Shown: positions 11,201-49,213 of the stretch, one piece after another | Layout of the letters: the number at the start of each line of letters is the position of its first letter | How positions within the stretch are numbered: the first letter of the stretch is position 1 | DNA from: Crambe crambe | Taxonomy: Eukaryota > Porifera > Demospongiae > Poecilosclerida > Crambeidae | Direction of reading: 5' to 3' | Assembly (NCBI GenBank): GCA_963924555.1 | Contig: OZ004593.1 | Span: 1,918,480-1,982,479 of the forward strand | DNA: 64,000 bases | Made by a program: the position numbers and the translations under genes | The notes under the pieces: model-generated | Databases searched by the model: none | Told to the model about the DNA's origin: nothing | Seen by the model: the letters and a program-made list of their open reading frames with translations, nothing else

Positions 11201-14200
11201 TGAAAGAGGTGCTCAAGTGAACATGCAGAACCCTAATGGATGGACTGCTTTAATGATTGCAGGTCAGAATTGTCACACTGAAGTAGTCAAACTACTGCTG
11301 GGAAAAGGTGCTCAAAAGGATTTGCGGAAATCTGATGGAGGGACTGCTTTAATAAGTGCAGGTCGGAATGGTCACACTGAAGTAGTCAAACTACTGCTGG
11401 AAAAAGGTGTTCAAGTGGACATACAGAGCTCTGATGGATTGACTGCTCTAATGAGTGCAAGTCAGAATGGTCACACTGAAGTAGTCAAACTACTGCTGGA
11501 AAAAGGTGCTCGATTAGATATACAAACTTCTGATGGATGGACTGCTCTAATGATTGCAAGTCAAAGTGGTCACACTGAAGTAGTCAAATTACTGCTTGAA
11601 AAAGGTGCTCAAGTGGACACACAGAACTCTGATGGATGGACTGCTTTAATGCTTGCAGGTCAGTGTGGTCACACTGAAGTGGTCAAACTACTGTTGGAAA
11701 AAGGTGCTCAGGTGGACATGCAGAGATCTGATGGATGGACTGCTCTAATGAGTGCAAGTCAGAATGGTCACACTGAAGTGGTCAAACTACTGTTGGAAAA
11801 AGGTGCTCAGGTGGACATGCAGAGATCTGATGGATTGACTGCTCTAATGAGTGCAAGTCAGAATGGTCACACTGAAGTAGTCAAACTACTGCTGGAAAAA
11901 GGTGCTCGATTAGATATACAAACTTCTGATGGATGGACTGCTCTAATGATTGCAAGTCAAAGTGGTCACACTGAAGTAGTCAAATTACTGCTTGAAAAAG
12001 GTGCTCAAGTGGACACACAGAACTCTGATGGATGGACTGCTTTAATGCTTGCAGGTCAGTGTGGTCACACTGAAGTGGTCAAACTACTGTTGGAAAAAGG
12101 TGCTCAGGTGGACATGCAGAGATCCGATGGATGGACTGCTCTAATGAGTGCAAGTCAGAATGGTCACACTGAAGTAGCCAAACTACTGCTTGAAAAAGGT
12201 GCTCAAGTGAACATGCAGAACCCTGATGGATGGACTGCTTTAATGATTGCAGGTCAGAATCGTCACACTGAAGTAGTCAAACTACTGCTGGGAAAAGGTG
12301 CTCAAAAGGATTTGCGGAAATCTGATGGAGGGACTGCTTTAATAAGTGCAGGTCGGAATGGTCACACTGAAGTAGTCAAACTACTGCTGGAAAAAGGTGC
12401 TCAAGTGGATATAAAGGATAATGACGGATCGACTGTTTTAATGATGGCAAGTAGAATGAGTCACTCTGAAGTAGTCTGTCTTCTATTAGAAAAAGGTGCC
12501 CAGGTTGACTCATTTGATCATAATGGATGCACTTCTTTAATGATTGCAAGTCAGTATGGTCACACTGAAGTAGTCAAACTACTGCTGGAAAAAGGTGCTC
12601 AAGTGGGCATGCAGGACTCTGATGGATTCACTGCTTTAATGTGTGCAGCTAAGAATGGTTACACTGAAATAGTCAAACTGCTGCTGGACAAAGGTGCTCA
12701 AGTGGACATACAAGATTGTAGTGGAGAGACTACTTTAATAAGTGCAGGTCGGAATGGTCACACTGAAGTAGTCAAATTACTGCTGGAAAAAGGTGCTCAA
12801 GTGGATTTACAGAACTCTGATGGACAAACTGCTTTAATGAGTGCAGGTCTTAATGGTCGTACTGAAGTAGTCAAACTACTGCTGAAAAAAGGTGCTTTAG
12901 TGGATATAAAGGATAATTATGGATTGACTGTTTTAATGATGGCAAGTAGAATGGGTCGCTCTGAAGCAGTCTATCTTCTATTAGAAAAAGGTGCCCAGGT
13001 TGACTCATTTGATCGTAATGGATGCACTTCTTTAATGATTGCAAGTCAGTATGGTCACACTGAAGTAGTCGAACTGTTATTGGCAAAAGGTGTTCAAGTT
13101 AATATGCAAGACAGCAATTATAAATCTGCTCTGATAATGGCAAGCGACTTTGGATGGAATGAAATAATCATAAAGTTATTAATTGAAAACTGGGCTGAAA
13201 TTGACCTTGAAGATAGAAATGGGAAAACCCCCTTGATGTATGCTAGTTCCAGTGGAAATGCTGATGCTGTTAAACTACTCGTTGAAGAAGGTGCTAAATT
13301 TGACAAGCAAGATAACAATGGCTGGTTTCCTTTGATGTATGCAGCACAAGCTGGTCATTGGGAAGTATGTGTTCTTCTTGTAGCATACGGTGCAAACTTA
13401 TACATGAAAAATCATAATGGGGATACCATATTTGATGTTTGTCTAGAAGCCGAATTTTTCTGCTTCAAGTACTTCAAGTACTTTTTGGTATGTTAAATAT
13501 TTCTTTTGTACATAGTCATTACTGCCAATCTTATTTCTAAAACAGTTGCAGGTAGCATTGAGTAAAGACAGTTGTGATATTCGTAAGTCAATCAGCAGTA
13601 GAAAAATTTAACTTGTTGATTTAATTCTGTTATGTACATGTGTATAGGTGTAGACCACAGTCATCCAGGGATATTCTTTTTCAAAATGCCTATAATGCAG
13701 CTCCTTACAGTTGAGCACACATCAATATCTCGATTGGAAGATATGGGGATAGAAATAACTATTGCAGAAAACTCATTAAAAGAACCTCTGGAGCTCTCTA
13801 TTCATCCTTGCTTCAGTGGACCATTTGACTTACCTCGTAAATACAAGTCAGCAAGTCCAGCCTACCTCATTAAACACAGCAAGAATGTAGACTTTCTGAA
13901 GGATTTGACAGTCAAGATACAGCACTATGCTTGCCTACAGAAAGAAAAGGACTGTGAAGACATGACGTTCCTCTCTGCCAGCTCCATTCCCCAATACAGA
14001 GAATCCAGTCCTGTCTATGTCTTCAGAGAGATAAAAGGGAAAAAGGGAAGATTCAGGCCTGGAGACCAGGTGGGAGAAGTGTCATTGAGACATTTCTGTT
14101 TTCTAAAAATAGGAAAGAGGAAGAGAAAGAAGCACAAAGGTATATACTAGCTACAGGTAAAATTTTAGTTTTGCATTCTCTAATGCAGATAAGAGATATT

Positions 14201-15641
14201 ACTCTGCAAGGTTGTATCGAAACTTACACCATGGCATCCCTTCTCAAGTGTCTGCTGTATTCTGCATATGCATATGCCATCCAATTTACATACAGGTATA
14301 CCTCACATCTTTATCTTACTGTGTAACTATAGGGATGCATGTGAGCACAAAGAAAATATATTCCTCTTAGTATCAAAACTAGGAATAAGGCTATATAAAT
14401 AAGAGGCTATAGCTACATTCTCACTACAATTTTGTGCATTGTAACAGGTGTGTAATGATAGAATCACAAAAGAATATAAAGGTATAGATGAAGGACAACA
14501 GGCACGAAGTGAAGTTAATACACGGATCTCCTCAGATGAAGTAATACTTAGAATCATAGGTGAAGAAGGATGGAACATTAGATTTGATAAAGAACCGACA
14601 AAAGTAAATAGTTGTAGCTATGCATTATTCAGAACACAAAATTTTGCCTGTTCTCTTTCACAGATTTTGAAGGATGATATTCATCTCCCTGAACTATTGG
14701 ACTTTGAAGTTTCCGATTTTCATGATTACCCTCCAAAGATTCTAATTTATGTGCAACCAACTGGTATAGCTTCTGTTCCACCTAAACTAGAAATCATAGG
14801 TCTTGACAGAGAGTGCTATTTTGAACTCCCAGCTCCAAGTAAGTCACCACTAGCTATGTAGCTACAGCATGTACCTAGAAGTGACTATAGATCTTAATTA
14901 TAGGTGTGGGCTACAGCAAGTATATATAATATTTACCCAGAGAGATAATTTGGTCCAGTAGTATAAGTAGTAGCTATATGGTACTGTATTTAAAAAATAA
15001 TAATAACTATACCTAATTTATGATAATATTTTTATCAAAACCCTCTAGCTCAGTGCCAGCCTTCAGTGGATGATCAATCACACACCACCTCATCAAGTGA
15101 ACCAATGAATGTAAGAATAAAATTAATCTAATCAAAAAAATCATAATAACATTCCCATCATAATAATAGGTGGCTCAATCTTCACCATTGAAAAGTAAGT
15201 GGAGGTGCAGCTGTTAGCTACATGTATTAGTAATTACGCTTTGCCCCTTTTATTACATAATAGATGAAGAACTGTTGTTTGATGATGGAGCCTTAGGTTA
15301 GTAGCTAGCTAACTAACTAGATATATCGATATTGTATAAAAATCCTTTTAGAAATTGATGATTTGGGAGATGTATTTGACTATGTGGAGACATTATCAGC
15401 TCGGTGGAAGGTGCTGGCCACTAAACTGCGTATCAAACTACATAATGTTGAAATCATTCAGAAGAACAATCCAGGGGATGTAATGACTTGCCTGAATGAA
15501 GTACTGGGTCAATGGCTCAAGTTGAACTATGATTATCAGAAACATGGAAGACCAAGCTGGCAGACATTAGCCAAGAGCGTGCAGAGTCTGGATCAGGGGC
15601 TCTTTGAGAAGATCGCCAGGGACCATCCTCCTAAGGAATAA
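5223..15641 (+). CDS. Gene A: giant ankyrin-repeat / ZU5 / UPA / death-domain protein, 5'-truncated and with one nonsense codon
   Basis: Ten exons fit by splice sites, frame and comparison with gene C: 5223-13487, 13546-13582, 13648-14139, 14189-14295, 14448-14603, 14664-14838, 15049-15110, 15170-15194, 15264-15296 and 15352-15641. The big exon holds a helical, lysine-rich N-terminal region and about 79 ANK repeats. The small exons encode ZU5, UPA, an acidic/serine linker and the death domain. An in-frame TAA at 7635-7637 replaces a TTA (Leu) found at the same place in B, C and D. Homology to the other paralogues starts only at about 5250, so the ATG is missing, and an in-frame stop lies at 5220-5222. 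An internal ATG at 5586 or the ATG directly after the stop (7638) could still serve as a start. The death domain and all splice sites are intact, so decay is recent, or the gene is expressed from another start. The family role is inferred to be a cytoplasmic scaffold or death-fold signalling protein. Confidence 0.85.
5640..13450 (+). repeat. Ankyrin repeat array of gene A, about 79 units of 99 bp
   Basis: Units of 33 codons repeat with very low divergence. Each has the second-helix motif GHTEVVKLLLEKGAQ and a first-helix motif TALM in place of the canonical TPLH. Two kinds of non-canonical linker interrupt the array, for example at 7500-7640 and 9085-9180 (GSALINKFTRLGDIETV then ERDIPVASLSQ). 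Larger duplications are nested: 8247-8820 is nearly identical to 10287-10860 (offset 2040), and a block near 11021 recurs at 11615 and 12011 (offsets 594 and 396, six and four units). Confidence 0.95.
13648..14139 (+). other. Gene A exon 3: ZU5 domain ending in His-Phe-Cys plus basic linker
   Basis: The acceptor TATAG is at 13643-13647 and the donor follows AAAG at 14139. The translation shows a typical ZU5 order: a strand start around SISRLEDMGIEITI, a segment around SASPAYLIKHSK and a C-terminal strand SLRHFCFLK. HFC is encoded at 14091-14099. A run of Lys/Arg (GKRKRKKHK) follows. Comparison with gene C supports the exon, with the same phase and few differences. Confidence 0.85.
14189..14838 (+). 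other. Gene A exons 4-6: UPA domain
   Basis: Exons 14189-14295, 14448-14603 and 14664-14838 join in frame (phases 1, 0 and 0 on entry). The product begins YYSARLYRNLHHG, passes CICHPIYIQ and ends near GLDRECYFELPAP. The order ZU5-UPA-death is the one known from UNC5, PIDD1 and ankyrins, which supports the UPA assignment although the sequence is divergent. Confidence 0.7.
15352..15641 (+). other. Gene A exon 10: death domain
   Basis: The exon starts after TTTTAG and runs to a TAA. It encodes a six-helix death-domain pattern: WKVLATKLRIKL, then VEIIQKNNPGD, then CLNEVLGQWLK, then PSWQTLAKSVQSLD. It is almost identical to the gene C copy but ends in PPKE, where C reads on to NHLKSV. Confidence 0.9.
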
Positions 15642-16378: not shown

Positions 16379-17392
16379 TAAGTAGAGAGCAACACATTTG
16401 TAAGCAGGGAGCAACACAAATTGTAAGCAGGGAGCAACACATTGTGTAATAACTCGATAGAACAAAATATAATATACTCAACTAAATCTGAACTAGGACA
16501 ATGATACAGAGACTTAAATACAGTCTGGATAAAACCACGTGGAATGTATGCATACAATAAATGATAATGTGACGTCATAGTTTACATAGTTATCACACAT
16601 TGTAAGCAGGGAGCAACACATTGTAAGCAGGGAGCAACACAAATTGTAAGCAGGGAGCAACACATTGTAAGCAGGGAGCAACACAAATTGTAAGCAGGGA
16701 GCAACACATTGTAAGCAGGGAGCAACACACATTGTAAGCAGGGAGCAACACAAATTGTAAGCAGGGAGCAACACATTGTAAGCAGGGAGCAACACAAATT
16801 GTAAGCAGGGAGCAATACATTGTAAGCAGGGAGCAACACATTGTCAGCAGGGAGCAACTAGGATTGAATAAATTATGCTAAATTTTTTCCCTATTATTCT
16901 ATTCTCTGATTCTCATTTTAGTTACATATTCTTTGAAAAAAATTAATGAGAATGCAACAGTTACAAGAAAGGATTTTATGAGTACCTATAGTTATACTGT
17001 AGCATCAGTGAAGACTCTACATAGTCTTCTAGAGCAAGAGTTTGTTGCTCTTTAATAACCACAGTCACTTACATACATCAACATGCTTACATGACACTTT
17101 TACATAGTGTGGTCTAGTTACCAGCTAGCCAGCCATATTGCTTGTAAAGTTGTACTCCAGTTGCATTATCACACACATACAGAACTTTGGCCTAAAATTC
17201 CCCCTATTATTCCAGCATTATTCCCTGATTCTTTGGCATACCTATTATTCTCAATATTATGCTAGCATAATTTATTCAAGCCTAGGAGCAACAGGGAGCA
17301 ACACATTGTAAGCAGGGAGCAACACATATAGTAAGCAGGGAGCAACAAATTATTGTAAGCAGGGAGCAACACATTGTAAGCAGATCCTTAGC
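16375..17392 (+). repeat. 21-23 bp minisatellite (GTAAGCAGGGAGCAACACA), clusters at 16375-16445, 16590-16860 and 17283-17392
   Basis: Units alternate between 21 and 23 bp, differing by two A residues before the next TTGTAAGC. I count roughly 13 units in the middle cluster and 3-5 in each of the outer two. The minus strand gives long Leu/Cys-rich frames with no stop, which are artefacts of the repeat. Other arrays of the same unit lie at 34376-34745 and 52785-52890. Confidence 0.95.
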
Positions 17393-17499: not shown

Positions 17500-17743
17500 T
17501 GTACACAATTAAGAGTTGGTATTGATTGTGATAATGACAGCTAAAAAATTTAAAAGTTTTGTTTATGCATTATGTACATAACAAGTGTATAGCTAACGTA
17601 CGACAGTTGTTATAACTGAAGGATGAATCATGTTATCACTTGAACGATGCATAATGCATTGGCATGGGGAAGCATTGGTATAAATAAGACAAACTGGCAG
17701 CAGATTGTGGTTTAGGCCTATAGCTGGCAAGTTTGTAAGCTAT
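17500..17743 (+). promoter_or_regulatory. Promoter of pseudogene B, TATA box 17679-17686
   Basis: The 240 bp before the ATG at 17744 match the gene C promoter block for block, including GACAGTTGTTATAACTGAAG and the TATA box in GGTATAAATAAGAC about 60 bp before the ATG. The palindromic stretch ATGCATAATGCAT lies about 25 bp upstream of the TATA box. Confidence 0.85.
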
Positions 17744-20700
17744 AATGGAATCTCTGAATATACAGAGACCACAAACAAGACCTCATCGCAACAACAAGAT
17801 AAGCAAATAATTCCTGCTCTTCGTGATAAAATTCATCAGGCCCGTACTGGTGTTCGCAGTATCTCAAAGACAGTATCAAAGAAGGTGAAAATTGTAGCTT
17901 CAACATTATTAGGAGCACATCAAGATAGAGAACATAAAAAGGCCATTAATGTTAAATACAATGAAGTTGTTAATGCCAGCATATTATCTGAAGTAGAGTC
18001 AAATTCCTTGAACCCCCTTAATGCTGCAAATGCTGAGGAAATAGGAGGGATAATTGAGGATCAAAGTTTCAAGAGGTTTAAAATAAAGAAACAGGAAGAA
18101 TGGTCTGATTTAATGAAGGCAAGTTTTGCTGGAAACTATGAAAACATTGAGAATTTACTAAGTGGAGGAACTGATGTCAATCAGCAGGATAATAATGGCA
18201 ACTCACCTCTGCTCTTAGCAAGTCAGAATGGTCACACTGATGTGATTAAACTACTGCTGGAAAAAGGTGCTCAAATGAACATAGAGGACGCAATTCTGCT
18301 ATAATAATAGCAATTGAATATGGCCAAACTAAAGTAGTTGAATTACTGCTAGAAAAAGGGGCTACAACACAGAGCTCTAATGGATCAACAGCATTAATGG
18401 CTGCAATTTTAAATGGTCACACTGAAGTAGTCAAACTACTGCTGGAAAAAGGTGCTCAAGTGGACATACAGGATTCTTCTGGATGGACTGCTTTAATGGA
18501 TGCAGGTCTGAAAGGCCACACTGAAGTAGTCAAACTACTGCTGTAAAAGGTGCTCAAGTGGACATAGAGGACAATTCTGGATTGACTGCTTTAATTAATG
18601 CAGCTTGGAATGGTCACACTGAAGTAGTCAAACTACTGCTGGAAAAAGGTGCTCAAGTAGACATACAGGACTCTTCTGGATTGACTGCTTTAATGAGTGC
18701 GGCTTGGAATGGTCACACTGAAGTAGTCAAATCATTGCTGGAAAAAGGTGCTCAAGTGGACATACAGAACTCTAATGGATGGACTGCTTTAATGATATCA
18801 ACTCAAAATGGTCACACTGAGGTAGTTAAACTACTGCTGAAAAAAGATGCTCAAGTGGTAGAGGGCACTTCTGGATTGACTGCTTTAATTAATGCAGCTT
18901 GGAATGGTCACACTGAAGTAGTCAAACTACTGCTGGAAAAAGGTGCTCAAGTAGACATACAGGACTCTTCTGAATTGACTGCTTTAATGATTGCAGGTCA
19001 TAATAGTCACACTGAAGTAGTCAAATTACTGCTGGAAAAAAGTGCTCAAATGGACATAGAGGACTCTTCTGGATGGACAGCTTGCAGGTCGGAATGGTCA
19101 CACTGAAGTAGTCCAACTACTGATGGAAAAAGGTGCTCAAGTGGACATACGGGACTCTTCTGGATTGACTGCTTTAATAAGTGCAGCTTGGAATGGCCAC
19201 ACTGAAGTAGTCAAACTACTGCTGGAAAAAGGTGCTCAAGTGGACATAGAGGACACTTCTGGATTGACTGCTTTAATTAATGCAGCTTGGAATGGTCACA
19301 CTGAAGTAGTCAAACTACTGCTGGAAAAAGGTGCTCAAGTAGACATACAGGACTCTTCTGGATTGACTGCTTTAATGAGTGCGGCTTGGAATGGTCACAC
19401 TGAAGTAATTAAATTATTGCTGGAAAAAGGTGCTCAAGTGGACATACAGAACTCTAATGGATGGACTGCTTTAATGATATCAACTCAAAATGGTCACACT
19501 GAGGTAGTCAAACTACTGCTGGAAAAAGATGCTCAAGTGGTAGAGGACACTTCTGGATTGACTGCTTTAATTAATGCAGCTTGGAATGGTCACACTGAAG
19601 TAGTCAAACTACTGCTGGAAAAAGGTGCTCAAGTAGACATACAGGACTCTTCTGGATTGACTGCTTTAATGAGTGCGGCTTGGAATGGTCACACTGAAGT
19701 AGTCAAATTATTGCTGGAAAAAGGTGCTCAAGTGGACATACAGAACTCTAATGGATGGACTGCTTTAATGATATTAACTCAAAATGGTCACACTGAGGTA
19801 GTCAAACTACTGCTGGAAAAAGATGCTCAAGTGGACATGCAGCAATCTGATGAATGGACTGCTTTAATGCATGCAGGTCAGAATGGTCTCACTGAAATAG
19901 TCAAACTACTGCTGGAAAAAGGTGCTCAAGTGAACATACAGAACTCTAATGGATGGACTGCTTTAATGATGTCAACTCAAAATGGCCGCACTGAAGTAGT
20001 TGAACTGCTACTAGAAAAAGGAGCTCATAGCTATAGACATTCTAAATGATGATGGACTGTCTGCTTTAACATTAGCAGTTAAAAAGGATCATACTGAATT
20101 GATCAAACTGCTATTAAAGAAAGGAGCACAAGTTGATGCGACAGGATCAGCTCTAATTAATAAATTTACTCGATTGGGTGATATTAAAACTGTAAAAAAG
20201 TTAATTGAGAGAGATATTCCAGTTGCATCACTAAGTCAGGCTTTAATGATAGCATGTGAAATTGGCCACAATGATGTCGTTGAACTTCTACTGGAAAAAG
20301 GTGCTCAAATAGACATGCAGAACTCTAATGGATGGACTGCTTTAATGATTGCAGGTCATAAGGGTCACATTGGAGTAGTCCAACTACTGCTGGAAAAAGG
20401 TGTTCAAATGGACATGCAGCAGTCTGATGGATGGACTGCTTTAATGAATGCAAGTCTGAAAGGCCACACTGAAGTAGTCAAACTACTGCTGGAAAAAAAT
20501 GCTCAAGTAGACATGCAGGACTCTTCTGGATGGACTGCTTTAATGAATGCAGCTAAGAAAGGTCACACTGAAGTAGTCAAACTACTGCTAGAAAGATGTG
20601 CTCAAATGGACATGCAGAAGTCTGATGTATGGACTGCTTTAATGATTGCAGCTAAGAAACGCCACACTGAAGTAGTCAAACTACTGCTGGAAAAAGTTGC

Positions 20701-20758
20701 TCAAGTGGACATACAGGACTGTTCTGGATGGACTGCTTTAATGAATCTACACTCTTAG
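17744..20758 (+). pseudogene. Gene B: ankyrin-repeat pseudogene with several frameshifts and no ZU5-UPA-death exons
   Basis: The start MESLNIQRP is preserved, but relative to gene C there is a 1-bp deletion near 17801, a 7-bp deletion near 18288, an indel that creates a stop near 18543 (CTGCTGTAA), a deletion near 19082 and a 4-bp insertion near 20028. The pieces between them (17804-18290, 18305-18540, 18558-19080, 19123-20025, 20060-20758) are still recognisable ANK repeats. Homology stops at about 20740, and no ZU5, UPA or death exon follows. It is therefore a 3'-truncated, non-functional member. A favoured local repeat type (TALINAAWNGHTEV) occurs only here and has itself been amplified. 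Confidence 0.9.
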
Positions 20759-20858
20759 CTAGTTTGCTATCCTCCCAGCATACATGTATGGGCTGATTTG
20801 ACATTTATTTCTCAGTTAGTTTTACTTCCTTAGCTAGTGTGATATTTATAATAACAAA

Positions 20859-25060: not shown

Positions 25061-25209
25061 TTCAGTCACACTCAGTGGTGTATCATCAAGATTTCAAAAT
25101 TTCTTCTCTTAGCTATGTAGCTATGTGACCATAATCATTTGATTATTTTTTAACTCATTCTTTTGCAGCTGCTGTGCCTTATCTAGCTAATTAATATATT
25201 TCTGTTCAG

Positions 25210-25892
25210 GGCTTCCAGTGGAATCCTGTGTCTACTTCTTCTGGTGTTTTTCTCAGCTATTCTTGCCACCTGGTCTCTGCCATTAGAAGATGATAACACC
25301 TTAGAATCATCTCCTTATATCGAAGCCTCTGCCAAGGTGCGACAGCAACGATATTATGATAACCATTATGATGGACGGCTTTTAAAAGAGTGTCCTTCTG
25401 GGAATCCATTTTCCCGTGTCATAAGTCATCACAATAATCGCCGTGAAGATAGAATTTGGAGGTGGGAGTGTGGGAAAGCATTTTCCTCTACTTCACATCA
25501 GCAATGCCGTTGGCATAAGAATGTGAATGGCTATGATAAACCAATGTTTTTCAAGTGTGATGCAAATAAGTACCTTAGTGGAGTCTATAGCCACCACAAC
25601 AACCGCCGTGAAGATCGTGTGTGGAGCTTTAAGTGTTGTGGTTCTCTACATTATGCTATCAAGAATTGCTATAACACTGAATATGTAAATGACTGGGATA
25701 AGTACATGCACTACACTGTACCCTCTGGCAAGGTCATAACAGGAGTTTACAGCTACCATGACAATCACAGGGAGTAAGTACCTGATGCTATAGATCATGA
25801 ACTTGCCATTATGTACTGTTATTTCCTTACACTGTAGGGACAGGAGATGGAGGTTCACTGTCTGTGACTATAAGTATAAGTATCATTATTAA
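25210..25892 (+). CDS. Dermatopontin-like secreted protein
   Basis: Exons 25210-25773 and 25838-25892 join (GGGA|GTAAGT ... TGTAG|GG) to give about 206 residues, the usual dermatopontin length. The N-terminus is a hydrophobic signal peptide (GILCLLLLVFFSAILA). Two copies of the family pattern follow: SHHNNRREDRIWRWEC and SHHNNRREDRVWSFKCC. The C-terminus reads YHDNHRED then RRWRFTVCDY. No ATG stands in frame in the 25210 exon. If an upstream exon ends in AT, the start codon would be split across the intron (AT|G), and two such AT|GT sites lie at 25116 and 25124. Dermatopontins are extracellular matrix or aggregation proteins. The palindrome at 21748-23048 contains decayed relatives, so the locus has duplicated locally. 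Confidence 0.85.
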
Positions 25893-28910: not shown

Positions 28911-28931
28911 AAATAACGAAACTAAAAACAA

Positions 28932-32090: not shown

Positions 32091-32118
32091 ATATATCTAT
32101 TAGATATCCTTGCTCGAT

Positions 32119-38269: not shown

Positions 38270-38531
38270 TAAGGATTGTACACAACTAATTAAGAGTTGG
38301 TTGTGATAATGACAGCTAAAAATTAAACTTTAAAAAGTTTATTTATGCATTACATAACAATTTAAGTGTATAGCTACCATATGACAGTTGTTATAACTGA
38401 AGGATGTATCATGTTATCACTTGAACAATGCATAATACATTGGCATGGGGAAGCATTGGTACGTATAAATAAGATAAACTGGCAGCAGATTGTGATTTAG
38501 GCCTATATAGCTAGTTTGTAAGGTACGTATA
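38270..38531 (+). promoter_or_regulatory. Promoter and 5'UTR of gene C, TATA box 38464-38471
   Basis: A block of about 260 bp shared with genes B (direct) and A (inverted). The TATA box TATAAATAAGA lies 61 bp before the ATG. Upstream are GACAGTTGTTATAACTGAAG, ATGTTATCACTTGAAC and the ATGCATAAT palindrome half. The near identity across paralogues suggests common regulation. Confidence 0.85.
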
Positions 38532-41500
38532 ATGGAATCTCTTAATATACAGAGACCACGAACAAGACCTCACCGCAACCGCAAGACAAAGCAAATAATT
38601 GTTGCTGGTCTTCGTAATAAATATAATCAGGCCCGTACTGGTGTTCACAGTATCTCAAAGACAGTATCAAAGAAGGTGAAAATTGTAGCTTCAACATTAT
38701 TAGGAGCACATCAAGATAGAGAACATAAAAAGGCCATTAATGCCAAATACAATGAAGCTGTTAATGCCAGCATATCGTCTGAAGTAGAGTCGAATTTCTT
38801 GAACCCCCTTAATGCTGCAAATGCTGAGGAAATAGGAGGGATGATTGAGGATCATGAAAGATATAGTAAAGAAAAATTGAGACTTCAAAGTTTTAAGAGG
38901 TTTAATATAAAGGAACAAGAAGAATGGTCTGATTTAATGAAGGCAAGTTTTGCTGGAAACTCTCAAAACATTAAGAATTTACTAAGTGGAGGAACTGATA
39001 TCAATCAGCAAGATAATAATGGCAACTCACCCCTGCTCTTAGCAAGTCAGAATGGTCACACTGATGTGGTTAAACTACTGCTAGAAAAAGGTGCTCAAAT
39101 GAACATTGAGGACTTTTATGGAAATTCTGCTATAACAATAGCAAGTGAGCATGGCCACACTGAAGTAGTTGAACTACTGCTAGAAAAAGGTGCTCAAACA
39201 CAGAGCTCTAATGGATTGACAGCATTAATGGCTGCAATTCAAAATGGTCACACTGAAGTAGTCGAACTGCTGCTGGACAAAGGTGCTCTAGTGGACATGC
39301 AAGATTGTGATGGACAGACTGCTTTAATGATTGCAAGTCAGAATGGTCACACTGAAGTAGTCAAACTGCTGCTGGACAAAGGTGCTCAAGTGGACATGCA
39401 AGATTGTGATGGACAGACTGCTTTAATAATTGCAGGTCTGAATGGTTACACTGATATAGTCAAACTACTGCTGGAAAAAAATGCTCAAGTGGACATACAG
39501 CAAAGTTATGATGGACAGACTACTTTAATGATTGCAAGTCAGAATGGTCACACTGATGTAGTTAAACTACTGCTAGAAAAAGGTGCTCAAATGAACATTG
39601 AGGACTTTTATGGAAATTCTGCTATAACAATAGCAAGTGAGTATGGCCAAACTGAAGTAGTTGAATTACTGCTAGAAAAAGGTGCTCAAATACAGAGCTC
39701 TAATGGATCGACAGCATTAATGATTGCAAGTCAGAATGGTCACACTGAAGTAGTCAAACTACTGCTGGAAAAAGGTGCTCAAATGGACATACAGAACTCT
39801 AATGGAATGACTGCTTTAATGATGTCAACTCAGAATGGCCACACTGAAGTAGTTGAAATGTTACTAGAAAAAGGTGCTCATGTAGACATTCTGAACAATG
39901 ATAAACTGTCTGCTTTAACATTAGCAGTTAAAAATGATCATACTGAATTGATCAAACTGCTATTAAAGAAAGGAGCACAAGTTCATGTGATAGGATCAGC
40001 TCTAATTAATGAATTTACTCGACTGGGTGATATTGAAACTGTTAAAATATTAATTGAAAGAGATATTCCAGTTGCATCACTAAGTCAGGCTTTAATGATA
40101 GCATGTGAAATTGGTCACAATGATGTCGTTGAACTTCTACTGGAAAAAGGTGCCCAAGTGGACATACAGGAATCTTATGGAGAGACTCCTTTAATAATTG
40201 CAGGTCAGAATGGTCACACTGAAGTAGTCAAACTACTGCTGGAAAAAGGTTCTCAAGTGGACATACATACCTCTGATGGATGGACTGCTTTAATGATTGC
40301 AGGTCAGAATGGTCACACTGAAGTAGTCAAAGTACTGCTGGAAAAAGGTGATCAAATGGACATACAGAGCTCTGATGGATGGACAGCTTTAATGGTTGCA
40401 GGTTTGAAAGACCACACAGAAGTAGTCAAACTACTGCTGGAAAAAGGTGCTCAAGTGGACATACAGAGCTCTGATGGATGGACTGCTTTAATGATTGCAG
40501 GTCAGAATGGTCACACTGAAGTAGTCAAAGTACTGCTGGAAAAAGGTGATCAAATGGACATACAGAGCTCTGATGGATGGACAGCTTTAATGGTTGCAGG
40601 TTTGAAAGACCACACAGAAGTAGTCAAACTACTGCTGGAAAAAGGTGCTCAAGTGGACATACAGAGCTCTGATGGATGGACTGCTTTAATGATTGCAGGT
40701 CAGAATGGTCACACTGAAGTAGTCAAACTACTGCTGGAAAAGGGTTCTCAAGTGGACATACATACCTCTGATGGATGGACTGCTTTAATGATTGCAGGTC
40801 AGAATGGTCACACTGAAGTAGTCAAACTACTACTGGAAAAAGGTGCTCAAATAGACATACAGGACTCTTCTGGATTGACCGCTTTAATGGTTGCAGGTTT
40901 GAAAGGCCACACTGAAGTAGTTAATCTACTGCTGGAAAAAGGTGCTCAAATGGACATACAGGACTCTTTTGGATGGACTGCTTTAATGATTGCAGGTCAG
41001 AATGGACACACTGAAGTAGTCAAACTACTGCTGGAAAAAGATGGTCAAATGGACATACAGGACTATTCTGGATGGACTGCTTTAATGGTTGCAAGTCAGA
41101 ATAGTCACACTGAAGTAGTTAAACTACTGCTGGAAAAAGGTGCTCGAAAGGATTTACAGAACTCTGATGGATTGACTTCTTTAACAATAGCAATTCAGAA
41201 TGGCCACACTGAAGTAGTTGAACTGCTACTAGAAAAAGGAACTCATGTAGACATTCTGAACAATAATGGACTGTCTGCTTTAAAATTAGCAGTTAAAAAG
41301 GATCATACTGAATTTATCGAACTGCTATTAAAGAAAAGAGCACAAGTTAATGTGACTGCTTTAATGATAGCAGGTCAGAAAGGTCACACTGAAGTAGTCA
41401 ATCTACTGCTGGAAAAAGGTGCTCAAGTAGACATGCAGAACTCTGATGGATTGACTGCTTTAATGAATGCAGGTCGGTATGGTCACACTGTAATGGTCAG

Positions 41501-44500
41501 ACTACTGCTGGAAAAAGGTGCTCAAGTGGACATGCAGAACTCTAATGGATTGACTGCTTTAATGAGTGCAGGTCGGAATGGTCACACTGAAATAGTCAGA
41601 CTACTGCTTGAAAAAGGTGCTCAAGTGGATATACAAACCTCTGATGGATGGACTGTTTTAATGATTGCAAGTCGGAATGGTCATACTGAAGTAGTCAAAC
41701 TACTGCTGGAAAAAGGTGTTCAAGTTGACATACAAACTTTTGATGGATGGACTGCTTTAATGATTGCAGATCTGAATGGTCACACTGAAGTAGTCAAACT
41801 ACTACTGGAAAAAGGTGTTCAAGTTGACATACAAACTTTTGATGGATGGACTGCTCTAATGAGTGCAAGTCAGAATGGTCACACTGAAGTAGTCAAACTG
41901 CTGCTGGAAAATGGTGCTCAAAAGGATTTACAAAACTCTAATGGATTAACTGCTTTAATGAGTGCAGGTCGGAATGGTCACACTAATGTAGTCAAACTAC
42001 TACTGAAAAAAGGTGTTCAAGTGGACATGCAAACTTCTGATGGATGGACAGCTTTAATGGTTGCTGGTCTGAATGGTCACACTGAAGTAGTCAAACTACT
42101 GCTGGAAAAAGGTGCTCAAAAGGATTTACAGAACTCTATTGGATGGACTGTTTTAATGATATTAACTCAGAATGGCCACACTGAAGTAGTTGAACTGCTA
42201 CTAAAAAAAGGAGCTCAAGTAGACATTCTGAACAATGATGGACTGTCTGCTTTAACATTAGCAGTTAAAAATGATCACACTGAATTGATCAAACTGCTAT
42301 TAAAGAAAGGAGCACAAGTTGATGCGACAGGATCAGCTCTAATTAATAAATTTATTCGACTGGGGGATATTGAAACTGTTAAAATGTTAATTGAGAGAGA
42401 TATTCCAGTTGCATCACTGAGTCAGAATTTAATGATAGCATGTAAAATTGGCCACAGTGATGTAGTTGAACTTCTACTGGAAAAAGATGTTCAAATGGAC
42501 ACACAGAACTCTAATGGATGGACTGCTTTAATGACAGCAGGTCAGTGGAATCACATTGAAGTAGTTAAACTACTGCTGGAAAAAGGTGCTCAAGTGGATT
42601 TACAGAACTCTAATGGATGGACTGCTTTAATGATAGCAGGTCAGTGGGATCATATTGAAGTAGTTAAACTACTGCTGGAAAAAGGTGCTCAAAATGATTT
42701 ACAGAACTTTGATGGATGGACAGCTTTAATGATTGCAGGTCAGAATGGTCACACTGAAGTAGTCAAACTACTGCTGGAAAAAGGTGCTAAAGTGGACATA
42801 CAGAACTCTGATGGATGGACTGCTTTGATGATCGCAGGTTGGAATGGTCACACAGAAGTAATTGAACTGCTACTAGAAAAAGGAGCTCAAGTGGACATAC
42901 AGAACTCTGATGGAGTTACTGCCTTAATATTGGCATTTGAAACCAATTCTACAGAAGTGATCAGGTTACTATTAGTGAATGGTGCTCGTATTCCAATGCC
43001 AAACAGATTTGTAGCATCTAGTCTTACTTTCCTGGGAGATGTTGAAATGGTTAAACTGTTGATAGAGAATGGTGTTCCTGTTGACATAAAATTAGCATCA
43101 CTTGATAAATCAGCTCTAATGTTTGCAAGTGAAATGGGCCACACTAAACTAGTTGAATGTTTATTGGAAAAAGGTGCTCAAGTGGACATGCAGGATAGGA
43201 ATGGAGCATCTTCTTTAATGTTTGCAAGTGAAAAGAATCACATCAAAGTGATCAAAATGCTACTTGAAAAAGGTACTCAAGTTGATATGCAGAACTCTAA
43301 TGGATGGACTGCTTTAATGAGTGCAGGTCGGAATGGTCACACTGAAATAGTCAGACTACTGCTGGAAAAAGGTGCTCAAGTGGATATACAAACCTCTGAT
43401 GGATGGACTGTTTTAATGATTGCAAGTCGGAATGGTCACACTGAAGTAGTCAAACTACTGCTGGAAAAAGGTGTTCAAGTTGACATACAAACTTTTGATG
43501 GATGGACTGCTTTAATGCATGCAGGTCTGAATGGTCACACTGAAGTAGTCAAACTACTGCTGGAAAAAGGTGCTCAAAAGGATTTACAGAACTCTAATGG
43601 ATGGACTGTTTTAATGATATTAACTCAGAATGGCCACACTGAAGTAGTTGAACTGCTACTAAAAAAAGGAGCTCAAGTAGACATTCTGAACAATGATGGA
43701 CTGTCTGCCTTAACATTAGCAGTTGAAAATGATCACACTGAATTGATCAAACTGCTATTAAAGAAAGGAGCACAAGTTGATGCGACAGGATTAGCTCTAA
43801 TTAATAAATTTATTCGACTGGGTGATATTGAAACTGTTAAAATGTTACTTGAGAGAGATATTCCAGTCGCATCACTAAGTCAGGCTTTAATGATAGCATG
43901 TGAAATTGGCCACAATGATGTCGTTGAACTTCTACTGGAAAAAGATGCTCAAATGGACATGCAGAAGTCTAATGGATGGACTGCTTTAATGATAGCAGTT
44001 CAGAATGGTCACACTGAAGTAGTCAAACTACTACTGGAAAAAGGCGCTCATATGGACATACAGAATTTTTATGGATGGACTGCTTTAATACTTGCAGCTA
44101 TAAATGATCACATTGAAGTAGTTCAACTGCTGCTGGAAAAAGGTGCTCAAAAGGATTTACAGAACTCTGATGGATGGACTGCTTTAATGAGTGCAGGTCA
44201 GAATGATCATACTGAAATAGTCAAATTATTACTGGAAAAAGGTGCTCAAATGGACATACAGAACTCTAATGGATGGACTGCTTTAGTGATTGCAGGTCAG
44301 AATGATCATACTGAAATAGTCAAACTATTACTGGAAAAAGGTGCTCAATTGGACATACAGAACTCTAATGGATGGACTGCTTTAATGAGTGCAGGTCAGA
44401 ATGGCCACACTGAAGTAGTCCAACTACTACTGGAAAAAGGTGCTCAAGTGGACATACAGAACTCTGATGGATGGACTGCTTTAATGATTGCAGATCAGAA

Positions 44501-47500
44501 TGGTAATACTGAAGTAGTCAAACTACTGCTGGAAAAAGGTGCTCAAGTGGACATACAGAACTCTGATGGATGGACTGCTTTAATGATTGCAGGTCAGAAT
44601 GGTCACACTGAAGTAGTCCAACTACTACTGAAAAAAGGTGCTCAAGTGGACATGCAAGAATGCAATGGATGGACTGCTTTAATAATAGCAGGTCAGCGGG
44701 GTCTTACAGAAGTAGTCAAACTACTGCTGGAAAAAGGTGCTCAAATGGACATACAAACCTCTAATGGATGGACTGCTTTAATGTTTGCGAGTAATAATGG
44801 TCATACTGAAATTGTCAATCTGCTACTAGAAAAAGGTGCTCATATGGACATTTTGAATAGTAATGGATCATCTGCTTTGATGTTATCATTTAAAAATAAT
44901 CATACTGAAGTGGTCAAACTGCTGATAAAGAAAAGGGCCCAATTTGATATACGAGACAAATTTGTAATATCTAATTTAATTAAATACACCCAGGAAGGAG
45001 GTGTTCCAGTGGACATTAAATTAACATCACTAGGTCGATCGCTTCTAATGATGGCAAGTAATGAGGGTCAGACTAAACTAGTTAAATTTTTACTTGAAAA
45101 GGGTGCTCAGGTTGACATGCAAGATAGGAATGGTTCATCTTCTTTAATGCTTGCAAGTAGTAACAGTCACAGTCAAGTGATCAGATTACTCCTGAAAAAA
45201 GGTGCTCAAATTGATTTACAGGACTCTGGTGGATATACTGCTTTAATGATTGCAGGTCGGAATGGTCACACTAAAGTAGTCAAAATCCTGCTGGAAAAAG
45301 GTGCTCACATTGACTTACAGGACTCTGGTGGATCGACTGCTTTAATGATGGCAAGTAGAATAGGCCACTCTGAAATTGTCTACCTTCTACTAGAAAAAGA
45401 TGCTAAGGTTGGCTTATGTGATTGTTTAATGAGTGCAAGTCAGAATGGTCACATTGAAGTAGTCAAAATGTTGCTGGAAAAAAGTGCTCAAGTTAATATG
45501 CAAAACACTAAAAGATGGACTGCTTTAATGATAGCAAGTCAAAATGGTCACACTGAAGTTGCCAAACTTCTACTAGAAAAAGGTGCTCATATGGATATCT
45601 TGAACAGCGATGGATTGTCTGCTTTAATCTTAGCAGCTAAATATTATCATACCGAAGTGGTCAAATTGCTGTTAAACAGAGGGGCTCAATTTGATATTCT
45701 AAACAAATTAGTAGTATCAACTTTAATTGAATTTACACAGCTGGGAGACATTGAAATGGTTAAATTATTAATCGATAGAGGTGTTCCAGTGGATATTAAA
45801 TTAACATCACTTGATCAATCAATCCTAATGTTGGCAAGTAATGAAGGTCACATTAAACTAATTGAATTTCTACTTGAAAAGGGTGCTCAAGTGGACATGC
45901 AAGATAGAAATGGTTCATCTTCTTTAATATTTGCAAGTAGTAATGGTCACATTCAAGTGATCAAACTACTGCTGGAAAAAGGTGCTCAAATTGACTTACA
46001 GGACTCTGGTGGATATACTGCTTTAATGATTGCAGGTCAAAATGGTCACACTAAAGTAGTCAAACTACTGCTAGAGAAAGGTGCTCAAGTGGACATGCAG
46101 GAATACGATGGATGGACTACTTTAATGATTGCAGGTCAGAATGGCCACAATGAGGTAGTCAAACTACTGCTGGAAAAAGGTGCTCAAGTGGACATGCAGG
46201 AATACGATGGATGGACTGCTTTAATGATTGCAGGTCAGAATGGCCACAATGAATTAGTCAAAATGCTACTGCTGGGAAAAGGTGCTCAAGTGGATATACA
46301 AACCTCTGATGGATGGACTGCTTTAATGATTGCAGGTCAGAATGGTAACACTGAAGTAGTTGAACTACTACTGAAAAGAGGTACTCATGTTGACTTACAG
46401 GACTCTGATGGATCGACTGCTTTAATGATGGCCTGTAAAATGGGTCACTCTGGAATAGTTTCCCATCTACTAGAAAAAGGTGCCCAGGTCGACTTATGTG
46501 ATTGTAATGGATGCACTTCTTTAATGATTGCAAGTCAGTATGGTCACACTGAAGTAGTCAAATTGTTATTGGAAAAATGTGCTCAAGTTAATATGCAAGA
46601 CAGTGATTATAAATCTGCTCTGATAATGGCAAACGACTTTGGAGAAAATGAAATGATCACTAAGTTATTAATTGAAAACTGGGCTGAAATTGACCTTGAA
46701 GATAGAAATGGGAAAACCCCCTTGATTTATGCTAGTTCAAGAGGAAATACTGATGTTATCCAATTACTCATTGATGAAGGTGCTAAATTCGACAAGCAAG
46801 ATAACAATGGCTGGTTTCCTTTGATGTATGCAGCACAAGCTGGTCAACTGGAAGCATGTCGTCTTCTCATAGCATATGGTGCTAATATACAGATGGAAAA
46901 TCATAATGGGGATACCATATTTGACATTTGTTCTCAAGAATACTTCTTCCAGGACTTGGTATGTTATTCCTTGTGTACACAGAGTCGTTACTATTGATCT
47001 TATTTTTAACAGTTGCAACTTGCATTGAACAAAGACAGTTGTGACATTCGTAAGTCAAATTATATATAACTTGTTGATTATAATTCTTTTCATGTACATG
47101 TGTATATAGGTGTAGACTCCAATCATCCTGGGATATTTTTTTTCAAGATGCCTATTGTGGAGAACCTTACAGTTGAACACACATCAATATCTCGGTTGGA
47201 AGATATGGGGATAGAAATAACTATTCCAGAAAACTCATTGAAAGAACCTCTAGAGCTCTCTATTCATCCTTGCTTCAGTGGACCATTTGACTTACCTTAT
47301 GGATACGAGTCAGCAAGTCCAGCCTACCTCATTAAACACAGCAAGAAAGTGGACTTTCTGAAGGATGTGACAGTCAAGATACAACACTATGCTTGCCTAC
47401 AGAGTGAAGAGGACTGTGAAGATATGGTGTTCCTCTCTGCCAGCTCAATTCCCCAATATATAGAATCCAGTCCTGTGTATGTCTTCAGAGAGATTCAAGG

Positions 47501-49213
47501 AGAAAAGGGAAGATTCAGGCCTGATGGCCAGGTTGGAGAAATATCATTGAGACACTTCTGCATTCTAAAAGCAGGAATAAAGAGGAAGAGAGAAGAGGAA
47601 GCCTCAGATAAGGAAGTCTCAGATACTCCAAAAAGATATAAAGGTAGCTACATAGGATAATAGATTATTAACTGAAGCATTTTATTAATCACCAATTCAT
47701 GCAGATAATGGATACTACTCTGCAAGGCTGTATAGAAACTTACACCACGGCATCCCTTCTCAAGTGTCTGCTGTATTCTGCATGTGCATATGCCATCCAA
47801 TTTACATACAGGTATACCTCACATCTTTGTCTTACTGTGTAACTATAGGGATGCATGTATGTAAGCACAAGGAAAATATAAAATTCCTCTTAGTATCAGA
47901 ACTAGGAATAAGGCTAAGCTATATAAATGAGAGGATATTCTCACTACAAGTTTGTGCATCCTAACAGGTGTGTAATGATAGAATCACAAAAGAATATAAA
48001 GGTATAGATGAAGGACAACAGGCACGAAGTGAAGTTAACACACGGATCTCCTCAGATGAAGTAATAATTAGAATGACAGGTGAAGAAGGATGGAACATTA
48101 GATTTGATAAACAACCAACAAAAGTAAATAGCTGTAGCTAGTTCGTTGCAGTATTCAGAACACATAAAATTTTGCCTATGTATATTTTCGCAGATTTTAA
48201 AGGATGATATTCATCTTCCTGAATTGTTGGACATTAAAGTTTCCGAATTTCTTGATTACCCTCCAAAGATTCTAATTTATGTACAACCAACTGGCATAGC
48301 TTCTGTTCCTCCTAAACTAGAAGTCATAGGTCTTGACAGAGAGTGCTATTTTGAACTCCCAGCTCCAAGTGAGTGACCACTAGCTATACAACATGTACCT
48401 AGAAGTCACTGTAGGTCTTAATTATAGGTGTGGGCTACAGCAAGGGTATATAATATTTACCCAGAGAGAATCATATGTACTAAATAATTTGGTCCACAGC
48501 AGTATAAGTATATATGGTACTGTACTTTCAAAATAATGATTACTATAATTATATATACCTAATTTATGCGGATAATATTTTTATCAAAACCCTCTAGTTC
48601 AGTGCCAGCCTTCAGTGGATGATCAATCACACACCACCTCATCAAGTGAACCAATGAATGTAAGAATAAATCTAATCAAAAAAATTGTAATAATATTCCC
48701 ATCATAATAATAGGTGGCTCAATCTTCACCATTGAAAAGTAAGTGGAGGTGCAACTATTAGCTACATGAACTAGTAATTATGCTTTGCCCCTTTTATTTG
48801 CATAATAGATGAAGAACTGCTGTTTGATGATGGAGCCTTAGGTTAGTAGCTAGCTAGCTAACTAGATATATCGATATTGTATAAAAATCCTTTTAGAAAT
48901 TGATGATTTGGGAGATGTATTTGACTATGTGGAGACATTATCAGCTCGGTGGAAGGTGCTGGCCACTAAACTGCGCATCAAACTACATAATGTTGAAATC
49001 ATTCAGAAGAACAATCCAGGGGATGTAATGACTTGCCTGAATGAAGTACTGGGTCAATGGCTCAAGTTGAACTATGATTATCAGAAACATGGAAGACCAA
49101 GCTGGCAGACATTAGCCAAGAGCGTGCAGAGTCTGGATCAGGGGGTCTTTGAGAAGATTGCCAGAGACCATCCTAAGGTATATAATGATAATAATCATTT
49201 AAAATCTGTTTAA
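38532..49213 (+). CDS. Gene C: intact giant ankyrin-repeat / ZU5 / UPA / death-domain protein
   Basis: Ten exons with consistent phases: 38532-46958, 47013-47049, 47110-47643, 47705-47811, 47968-48123, 48194-48368, 48598-48659, 48714-48738, 48809-48841 and 48897-49213. The product is about 3290 residues. It has a basic N-terminus (MESLNIQRPRTRPHRNRK), a Lys-rich helical region to about residue 130 and about 81 ANK repeats to residue 2809. ZU5 covers about 2825-2978 with His-Phe-Cys at 2970-2972, a KRKR...PKRYK linker follows, and UPA spans about 3000-3145. An acidic/serine linker leads to the death domain (3186-3275). There is no signal peptide or membrane segment, so it should be cytosolic or nuclear. 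The start ATG is that of the conserved MESLN block downstream of the TATA box. A possible donor at AAG|GTATAT (about 49175) could give another C-terminus. The overall order resembles vertebrate ankyrins and PIDD1. A role in death-fold signalling is inferred. Confidence 0.92.
38940..46940 (+). repeat. Ankyrin repeat array of gene C, about 81 units of 99 bp
   Basis: The dominant unit carries TALM(I/S)AG and GHTEVVKLLLEKGAQ. The linker module GSALIN(K/E)F..LGDIETVK..IERDIPVASLSQ occurs at about 39995-40090, 42330-42425 and 43785-43880. A second module (LGDVEMVKLLIENGVPVDIK and relatives) occurs near 43030-43090, 44990-45020 and 45735-45800. A two-unit block of 198 bp is duplicated in tandem at about 40274-40670. 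Confidence 0.95.
47110..47643 (+). other. Gene C exon 3: ZU5 domain with His-Phe-Cys and bipartite basic linker
   Basis: The exon follows TATATAG and ends AAAG|GTAGCT. ZU5 runs from about the VEHTSISRLEDMGIEI segment to SLRHFCILK, with HFC encoded at 47553-47561. The linker has two basic clusters, KRKR and PKRYK, separated by about 15 mostly acidic residues, the pattern of a bipartite nuclear localisation signal. Confidence 0.85.
47705..48368 (+). other. Gene C exons 4-6: UPA domain
   Basis: Exons 47705-47811, 47968-48123 and 48194-48368 encode the same UPA-like segment as in gene A, with few substitutions. Confidence 0.7.
48897..49213 (+). other. Gene C exon 10: death domain
   Basis: The domain residues FDYVETLSARWKVLATKL to SLDQGVFEKIARDHP match gene A except for one or two changes. 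This is much closer than the surrounding introns and suggests purifying selection. Confidence 0.9.

What the first reader, a model, noticed from the sequence alone, without database searches (positions are those of the whole stretch)
13648..49213. His-Phe-Cys at the ZU5 end: candidate autoproteolysis site with a cysteine nucleophile
In genes A (14091-14099) and C (47553-47561) the last ZU5 strand reads SLRHFC. In PIDD1, UNC5CL and the ZU5-UPA (FIIND) module of NLRP1/CARD8, the corresponding place carries His/Ser-Phe-Ser, where the protein cleaves itself between Phe and Ser. Here the domain order ZU5-UPA-death is the same and Cys stands in place of Ser. A thiol can start the same acyl shift, so these giant ANK proteins may split into an ANK-ZU5 part and a UPA-death part that stay together until a signal releases them.
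Basis: partly seen in the sequence, partly recalled or inferred. Interest (0 to 1): 0.85.

Follow-up and report, generated by a model that had tools for sequence, protein, structure and literature searches.

The report
Candidate self-cleavage site in death proteins
Two very long repeat proteins, and dozens of their relatives in the same animal-like genome, carry a conserved His-Phe-Cys about where related human immune proteins cut themselves in two, so they may be cell-death switches that self-cleave with a cysteine instead of the usual serine; no cleavage has been tested.

Summary
In detail: SLRHFC is encoded at 14091-14099 and 47553-47561, at the end of a ZU5 exon in two ANK-ZU5-(UPA-like)-death genes. 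Gene C is open over 3288 residues; gene A has a stop in its ANK part. The triplet is a family feature: of 93 sites read in this genome 66 have Cys, 12 Ser, 15 neither. In the branch holding A and C, one site-less clade set aside, His, Phe and Cys are each kept in 52 of 53 rows. Ser prevails in a sister branch; two copies 93% identical differ as QFC/QFS. Alignments put HFC on the SFS cut site of CARD8/NLRP1 (36-39 of 40 resamplings), but with the triplet masked only the neighbourhood remains (99 of 160 runs within four residues), so the register rests on the motif. The structural test failed (pLDDT 38.7), no Pfam UPA, FIIND or S68 match reached cut-off, the CARD8/NLRP1 catalytic His has no clear counterpart, and a clade without the site keeps its UPA-like exon. 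Thiol-started autoproteolysis is the best single explanation (0.5), unproven. A thiol active site for the ZU5 superfamily and a ZU5 expansion in sponges were described in 2012.

The parts
7638..13487 (+). Gene A, ANK-repeat coding stretch downstream of an in-frame TAA at 7635-7637 (upstream open part 5223-7634)
13546..13582 (+). Gene A, small linker exon between ANK and ZU5
   Evidence: frame and splice sites
13648..14139 (+). Gene A, ZU5 exon ending SLRHFCFLKIGKRKRKKHK
14091..14099 (+). Gene A, His-Phe-Cys (CAT TTC TGT): candidate scissile bond Phe-Cys
14112..14138 (+). Gene A, basic patch GKRKRKKHK right after the site
   Evidence: a basic cluster is present in 46 of 56 tails of the main family outside the Ser branch and the site-less clade
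14189..14295 (+). Gene A, UPA-like exon 1 (YYSARLYRNL...)
14448..14603 (+). Gene A, UPA-like exon 2
14664..14838 (+). Gene A, UPA-like exon 3 (DIHLPE...DYPPK...GLDRE)
15352..15640 (+). Gene A, death-domain exon
   Evidence: Pfam Death 17.4 bits, E 0.0049, below cut-off 22.6; paralogous exons
38511..46958 (+). Gene C, ANK-repeat exon, open throughout
47013..47049 (+). Gene C, small linker exon
47110..47643 (+). Gene C, ZU5 exon
47553..47561 (+). Gene C, His-Phe-Cys (CAC TTC TGC)
47705..47811 (+). Gene C, UPA-like exon 1
47968..48123 (+). Gene C, UPA-like exon 2
48194..48368 (+). Gene C, UPA-like exon 3
48897..49183 (+). Gene C, death-domain exon (3' end approximate)

Best explanation
Genes A and C belong to a large family of long ANK-ZU5-(UPA-like)-death proteins in which the end of ZU5 carries an autoprocessing site whose nucleophile is Cys in most members read and Ser in a sister branch. 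Proposed working: the ZU5 fold buries the Phe and strains the Phe-Cys bond; the His two residues before the Cys helps take the thiol proton; the thiol attacks the preceding carbonyl (N-to-S acyl shift) and water hydrolyses the thioester. The ANK-ZU5 part and the UPA-death part stay together through strand pairing until the first is removed or rearranged, freeing a basic-headed UPA-death fragment. Shown here: architecture, place of the site at the ZU5 end, conservation, Cys/Ser interchange. Inferred: the chemistry, the cleavage, the release and the death signal.
For: HFC at both loci at the ZU5 end with in-frame splicing to UPA-like and death exons. ZU5 homology to Ankyrin-1, ZO-1 and, weakly, UNC5B. 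Site survey: 66 C, 12 S, 15 other of 93. In the Cys branch without the site-less clade H, F and C are each kept in 52 of 53 rows, with 1 change per column against a median of 6; 17 of 72 columns, these three included, have at most 1. Cys codons 33 TGC and 33 TGT over all 66 Cys rows, all 12 Ser codons AGY, one base from TGY. Near-twins L093 QFC and L097 QFS, 93% identical over 60 columns. Ser-type genes L094 and L089 have a UPA-like exon downstream and, further on by coordinates, a death exon 74 and 76% identical to gene A's. UPA-like first exon downstream in 50 of 50 loci L031-L080, two of them genes A and C. Resampled alignments put HFC on SFS of CARD8/NLRP1 in 39 (global) and 36 (local) of 40 runs with FIIND proteins alone, 33 and 33 of 40 with UNC5B added. 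dN/dS 0.17-0.61 in 15 of 15 pairs of six close copies of the ZU5 exon. The same region is cut in rat NLRP1 (PMC8081665, section read) and CARD8 (PMC3210808, sections read), where Ser, Thr and Cys are named as possible nucleophiles of this chemistry.
Against: No cleavage data. Structure model unusable, pLDDT 38.7. With the triplet masked the exact register appears in 1 of 80 runs (references plain) or 9 of 80 (references masked); within four residues in 63 of 80 global but only 36 of 80 local runs. hhalign against the FIIND is not significant, E 0.2-0.63, and its local match is another place, CARD8 LPHFISL; the UNC5B register is ambiguous. No Pfam UPA, FIIND or Peptidase_S68 match over cut-off in the genome. 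No clear counterpart of CARD8 His270 / rat NLRP1 His942 in the main family (inference), and the -2 residue, here His, matters little in CARD8 and, by that paper, in Nup98; in 5 of the 9 Ser rows of the sister branch it is not His. A 13-row clade lost the site, 12 of them with the UPA-like exon. Over all 77 tree rows the Cys column is unexceptional, 8 changes against a median of 9. C-to-S is also the commonest change at two of three other Cys columns of the domain (C91: 16 of 40 non-Cys rows; C98: 7 of 14; at C50 it is Ala, 7 of 12), so the interchange alone does not prove a nucleophile. No UPA-like exon was found within 3 kb of HFC loci L081 and L085.
Confidence: 0.5

Rival explanations
1. HFC is a structural end-of-strand motif of an uncleaved ZU5-UPA module, as in UNC5A-D and the ankyrins; Phe packs the core and Cys/Ser is a small residue at a tight spot.
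For: UNC5B and ankyrins have ZU5-UPA without the motif (sequences); the site-less clade keeps its UPA-like exon; exact register not independent of the motif; F is conserved like other core columns; C-to-S is common at two other Cys columns.
Against: Outside the site-less clade the position holds C or S in 78 of 80 rows, the others Tyr and Gly, never Ala, Val or Thr; His, Phe and Cys are each kept in 52 of 53 Cys-branch rows; Cys is also kept in 9 loci without the other cysteines of the domain.
Confidence: 0.33
2. The His-x-Cys pair has another thiol role: metal ligand, redox switch or lipid attachment.
For: His and Cys stay together in the Cys branch and lie on one face if the stretch is a beta strand (inference).
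Against: 9 loci with Cys at the site have none of the three other ZU5 cysteines C50, C91, C98, although several have a second Cys three residues on; Ser replaces Cys in a sister branch and would not serve such roles well (inference).
Confidence: 0.1
3. The gene copies are decaying repeats and the motif is a fossil without current function.
For: Gene A has an in-frame stop in ANK; several paralogous exons contain stops.
Against: Gene C is open for 3288 codons; dN/dS below 1 in 15 of 15 pairs of close copies; Cys kept with synonymous turnover.
Confidence: 0.05

Closest known systems
PIDD1 (MEROPS S68; ZU5-UPA-death, cleaved at HF/S)
   Same: ZU5 then UPA then death domain; His-Phe before the nucleophile; repeats before it (LRR in PIDD). 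HF/S of PIDD and its LRR are stated in PMC3210808 (passages read).
   Different: Cys instead of Ser in A and C; one ZU5 found, PIDD has two (PMC3482391, passage read); ANK instead of LRR; Pfam Peptidase_S68 gives no match over cut-off.
FIIND of NLRP1 and CARD8 (cleaved at SF/S)
   Same: ZU5-UPA followed by a death-fold domain; Phe before the nucleophile; aligned place; one paralogue reads SFS (L095).
   Different: Cys nucleophile; counterpart of the catalytic His270/His942 not found in the main family; death domain, not CARD; the new N-terminus would be Cys-Phe or Cys-Ile, not Ser-Pro as in NLRP1 (sequence); no FIIND profile match.
UNC5A-D and ankyrin-1/2/3 (uncleaved ZU5-UPA-death)
   Same: Domain order; ANK-ZU5-UPA-death is the ankyrin order; sequence match to the ZU5.
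   Different: UNC5B (QLG) and ankyrins (RFW, place by eye) have no such triplet there; that they are uncleaved and that ankyrins have two ZU5 domains is recalled.
Lineage-specifically expanded ZU5 proteins of sponges (Zhang et al. 2012, PMC3482391)
   Same: Large ZU5 expansion with a proposed defence role; the paper assigns a thiol autopeptidase active site ('CxH motif') to the ZU5 superfamily (passages read).
   Different: Its alignment is in an additional file that I could not read; the passages I read do not mention a Cys/Ser split, ANK repeats in these proteins or a site-less clade.
UNC5CL
   Same: ZU5-UPA-death, reported to self-cleave at HFS (recalled, not seen in a call).
   Different: Membrane anchored, Ser nucleophile (recalled).

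Membership tests
ZU5 domain (PF00791) | Match to the curated ZU5 profile or solved ZU5 structures | tested here: met
   Gene C 18.6 bits, below cut-off 21; gene A's exon alone no match; 10 of 13 members match at E<=1, best 3.2e-4; profile of 28 rows finds Ankyrin-1 9.5e-6 and ZO-1 1e-5.
UPA domain (PF17217) | Match to the UPA profile | tested here: not met
   No match in genes A and C, in 13 members or over cut-off in the genome.
UPA domain (PF17217) | Follows ZU5, about 140 residues, strand pattern like UNC5B/CARD8/ankyrin UPA | tested here: inconclusive
   Place and length fit; strand pattern compared by eye only; hhalign not significant.
Death domain (PF00531) | Match to the Death profile | tested here: inconclusive
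   Exon alone 17.4 bits, E 0.0049, cut-off 22.6; homologous exons at many places in the genome.
Autoproteolytic ZU5 (PIDD/NLRP1/CARD8 type) | Phe followed by a nucleophile at the ZU5-UPA junction | tested here: met
   HFC in A and C; 78 of 93 readable sites have C or S, 76 of them after Phe; exact register motif-dependent.
Autoproteolytic ZU5 (PIDD/NLRP1/CARD8 type) | Serine nucleophile | tested here: not met
   Cys in A and C; Ser in 12 of 93 relatives.
Autoproteolytic ZU5 (PIDD/NLRP1/CARD8 type) | His general base: in the triplet (PIDD) or at CARD8 His270 | tested here: inconclusive
   Triplet His present in 52 of 53 Cys-branch rows; no clear His270 counterpart in the main family; in CARD8 the -2 residue matters little and His270 is crucial (PMC3210808).
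Autoproteolytic ZU5 (PIDD/NLRP1/CARD8 type) | Observed self-cleavage into two associated fragments | not testable with these tools
   Needs expression.
FIIND (PF13553) | Match to the FIIND profile | tested here: not met
   0 matches at E<=1 in the genome (the control genomes also gave none, so this is weak); hhalign E 0.2-0.63.
Peptidase_S68 (PF10461, PIDD) | Match to the S68 profile | tested here: not met
   One sub-threshold match elsewhere in the genome, E 0.64, 18.3 bits of 31.9.

The most novel reading that the evidence does not exclude
A thiol version of the PIDD/NLRP1 self-cleavage module exists. Because Cys is the nucleophile, the freed UPA-death fragment starts with cysteine, followed by a basic patch; an N-terminal Cys is the kind of substrate of the oxygen-sensing dioxygenase ADO and the Cys/Arg N-degron, so the death fragment could be an oxygen- or NO-gated cell-death signal. 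The genome has one place matching PCO_ADO over the cut-off and three matches to the ATE1 arginyltransferase family.
Probability: 0.06. Interest if true: 0.85.

Novelty: new variant of a known kind. Interest (0 to 1): 0.58.

Why it matters
If cleavage occurs, it would show that self-splitting ZU5-UPA death switches are not tied to a serine, give an animal counterpart of the NLRP1/CARD8/PIDD logic with ANK repeats as the likely sensing arm, and offer natural Cys, Ser and site-less versions in one genome, including near-identical Cys/Ser twins, as a ready experiment on how the nucleophile sets cleavage rate. The question becomes testable with one expression construct.

Tried and rejected
Structural superposition: AlphaFold2 on the ZU5 exons of A and C gave pLDDT 38.7, so no fold search was run. 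A second prediction (gene C's exon alone) was not accepted and not repeated.

Homologues elsewhere: the search for related loci found none in genome contigs or viral contigs; searches failed because the alignment was too diverse.

Profile-profile tests against UNC5B, ankyrins and FIIND: only the ZU5 core of UNC5B is found (E 3.4e-5, probability 72, 83 columns, ending before the site); UPA and site not significant. A position-weight scan gave the SFS register in CARD8/NLRP1, but only 4 offsets existed there, and it failed in UNC5B and ankyrins: not used as evidence.

Zinc-site idea: weakened by the subfamilies lacking the other cysteines. Idea that site loss goes with death-domain loss: the chromosome-3 site-less cluster shows no match, but searches scored only 150 of 538 and 150 of 965 candidates, and site-less L092 has a death match downstream (C19:4990279); left open. 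A search for S-to-C mutants of these proteins gave nothing relevant among the 12 listed of 19 papers.

Rows dropped: 6 of 100 loci did not align (L002, L003, L014, L016, L017, L023); L047 ends before the third residue; 17 of 94 were left out of the tree. The survey is not random: the 30 best of each of two searches, the next 20, then 20 picked for spread, from 150 scored of 276 candidates and 64 Pfam matches.

Full report
What is there. The window is G000:C16:1918480-1982479 of an unnamed 143-Mb, 119-contig genome. SLRHFC is encoded at 14091-14099 and 47553-47561. Each ZU5 exon is preceded by long ANK-repeat coding sequence and a 37-nt exon, and followed by three UPA-like exons, three small exons and a death-domain exon, with GT/AG splice sites and an open frame. 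Gene C is open for 3288 codons, counted from the stop before its ANK exon. Gene A has an in-frame TAA at 7635-7637 in ANK; downstream it is open for 2408 codons.

Domain identity. Gene C's ZU5 scores 18.6 bits against Pfam ZU5 (cut-off 21), gene A's exon has no match. Ten of 13 spliced members match ZU5 at E<=1, best 3.2e-4, gene A being among the three without. A profile of 28 ZU5 exons finds Ankyrin-1 (9.5e-6), ZO-1 (1e-5), Ankyrin-2/3 and, weakly, UNC5B (0.098) in the PDB. The death exon matches Pfam Death at E 0.0049, below the curated cut-off. The part between has the place and length of a UPA and a similar strand pattern by eye, but no profile finds it, so I call it UPA-like. Its first exon (YYSARLYR...) follows the ZU5 exon in 50 of 50 loci L031-L080, two of which are genes A and C (tblastn E<1; 49 at E<=0.013).

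Is HFC more than chance? The genome holds a large family: 150 scored of 276 candidates match the ZU5 exon. I read the site in 93 of 100 fetched loci: HFC 62, HFS 5, RFS 2, QFS 2, SFS, NFS, EFS, QFC, EFC, HLC, TPC one each, SLQ 9, SLR 3, SLD 1, HFY 1, HLG 1. So 66 Cys, 12 Ser, 15 neither. The sample is the best matches plus a chosen spread, not random. On a tree of 77 main-family rows, built without the triplet on 69 columns, the states need 5 changes (shuffled mean 22.5). One branch (100/99) holds 9 Ser, 1 Cys and 1 HLG; the other holds 52 Cys and 14 without a nucleophile, 13 of them one clade (99/79). In that second branch without the 13-row clade, H, F and C are each kept in 52 of 53 rows with one change, against a median of 6; 17 of 72 columns, these three included, have at most one change. 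Over all 77 rows the Cys column is not exceptional (8 changes, median 9). Cys codons are 33 TGC and 33 TGT, all 12 Ser codons AGY. L093 (QFC) and L097 (QFS) are 93% identical over 60 columns. The ZU5 exons of six close copies look to be under purifying selection (dN/dS 0.17-0.61, 15 of 15 pairs below 1).

Is it the cleavage position? In rat NLRP1 the chain is cut between F968 and S969, Phe sits in a hydrophobic pocket, and the first UPA strand pairs with ZU5 (PMC8081665, section read). In CARD8 the cut is F296/S297, with F296 corresponding to UNC5B Leu677 (PMC3210808, passages and two sections read). In 40 resampled alignments HFC falls on SFS of CARD8 and NLRP1 in 39 (global) and 36 (local) with FIIND proteins alone, and in 33 and 33 when UNC5B is added; against UNC5B itself the register is ambiguous: QLG (Leu677-Gly678) in 10-14 of 40, another place (TPC) in 21-26 of 40 global runs. 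When the triplet is masked, the exact register appears in 1 of 80 runs with plain references and 9 of 80 with masked ones; the aligned residue lies within four residues of the cut Ser in 63 of 80 global and 36 of 80 local runs. hhalign against the FIIND is not significant and prefers another place. So the neighbourhood has partial independent support, the exact register rests on the motif. The structure prediction was unusable.

Catalytic residues. CARD8 His270, rat NLRP1 His942, is essential, whereas the residue two before the nucleophile matters little in CARD8 and, as that paper reports, in Nup98. The main family shows no clear His at the His270 place; some distant subfamilies with Cys at the site (L001, L010, L013, L028) have a His nearby (inference). 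The His of HFC would then have to serve; the same paper calls the His of HFS in PIDD and Nup98 functionally important. In the Ser branch 5 of 9 Ser rows have no His at -2 (RFS, QFS, NFS, SFS, EFS), which weakens the case for those genes. The interchange of Cys and Ser is suggestive, not decisive: at two of three other Cys columns Ser is also the commonest replacement (C91 16 of 40, C98 7 of 14; at C50 it is Ala, 7 of 12).

Natural controls. Thirteen paralogues in one clade lost the site (SLQ, SLR, SLD). A UPA-like exon lies within 3 kb downstream in 12 of the 13 (the thirteenth, L030, has a weak match, E 0.011), and L092 has a death match downstream. They would be uncleavable, like UNC5A-D. 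The Ser-type genes L094 and L089 have a UPA-like exon and, by coordinates, a death exon 74 and 76% identical to gene A's, so Cys and Ser versions share one architecture. Of the 9 Ser rows in that branch 6 have the UPA-like exon within 3 kb; L091, L095 and L098 gave none, nor did HFC loci L081 and L085. Right after the site a basic cluster occurs in 46 of 56 tails of the rest of the main family (55 Cys, 1 Tyr), 8 of 14 of the Ser group, 3 of 13 site-less and 0 of 10 distant-subfamily tails; it could serve as a nuclear-localisation signal on a freed fragment (inference).

How it most likely works. ANK repeats sense or bind; ZU5 self-cleaves at Phe-Cys by an N-to-S acyl shift; the halves stay paired; removal of the N-terminal half frees UPA-death for assembly. 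Only the anatomy and conservation are shown here. I put 0.5 on cleavage by this route, 0.33 on an uncleaved structural motif.

Novelty. Self-cleaving ZU5-UPA is known with Ser in PIDD, NLRP1 and CARD8. Zhang et al. 2012 (PMC3482391, passages read) already describe a thiol autopeptidase active site for the ZU5 superfamily and a lineage-specific expansion of ZU5 proteins in sponges with a possible defence role. In the papers listed by my searches (titles, starts of abstracts and, for a few, passages) I saw no report of the Cys/Ser split or of cleavage at HFC; most subscription papers are not in the library. Hence a new variant of a known kind. The boldest reading, an N-terminal-Cys degron on the death fragment, is speculation: the genome has PCO_ADO and ATE1-family matches, and ADO acts on N-terminal Cys (starts of abstracts).

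Noticed in passing
7635-7637: In-frame TAA in the ANK part of gene A, in a stretch that stays open in gene C; gene A may be a broken allele, a pseudogene or an assembly error.
   Followed up: partly
G000:C3:7485101-7825614: A tandem cluster of ZU5 paralogues on contig 3; the 10 whose site I read lack the Phe and the nucleophile (SLQ/SLR) and UPA-like exons lie in the cluster: natural uncleavable relatives.
   Followed up: partly
L010, L015, L018, L021, L025, L026, L029, L001: Distant ZU5 subfamilies also read HFC, followed by a second Cys (HFCFVC, HFCFTC, HFCSFC), with no match to this UPA-like exon within 3 kb.
   Followed up: partly
17684-20758: ANK-repeat open frames on the + strand in several pieces, with no ZU5-exon match beside them; looks like a broken or partial third copy.
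   Followed up: no
57291-63243: Further 99-bp ANK-type tandem arrays on the right side of the window; the ZU5 exon at C16:1985881 (L035) lies 3.4 kb beyond the window's right end.
   Followed up: no
26874-30376: Minus-strand open frames that look like a retroelement; 27828-28421 matches reverse transcriptase (Pfam RVT_1, 4.7e-14); three neighbouring frames scanned had no match.
   Followed up: partly
25187-25774: Dermatopontin-domain open frame (Pfam DERM, 9.5e-40).
   Followed up: partly
31362-32096: Minus-strand open frame ending in a PHD finger (7.2e-7); the part before it looks like a Ulp1/SENP-type protease by eye (recalled pattern).
   Followed up: partly
16594-16858 and 34377-34742: Two arrays of the same 21-bp unit (GTAAGCAGGGAGCAACACATT), one downstream of gene A's 3' end.
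   Followed up: no
G000, contig 14: Many death-domain exons 54-66% identical to gene A's on a contig with no ZU5 match listed, suggesting the death domain is shared with another gene family.
   Followed up: no
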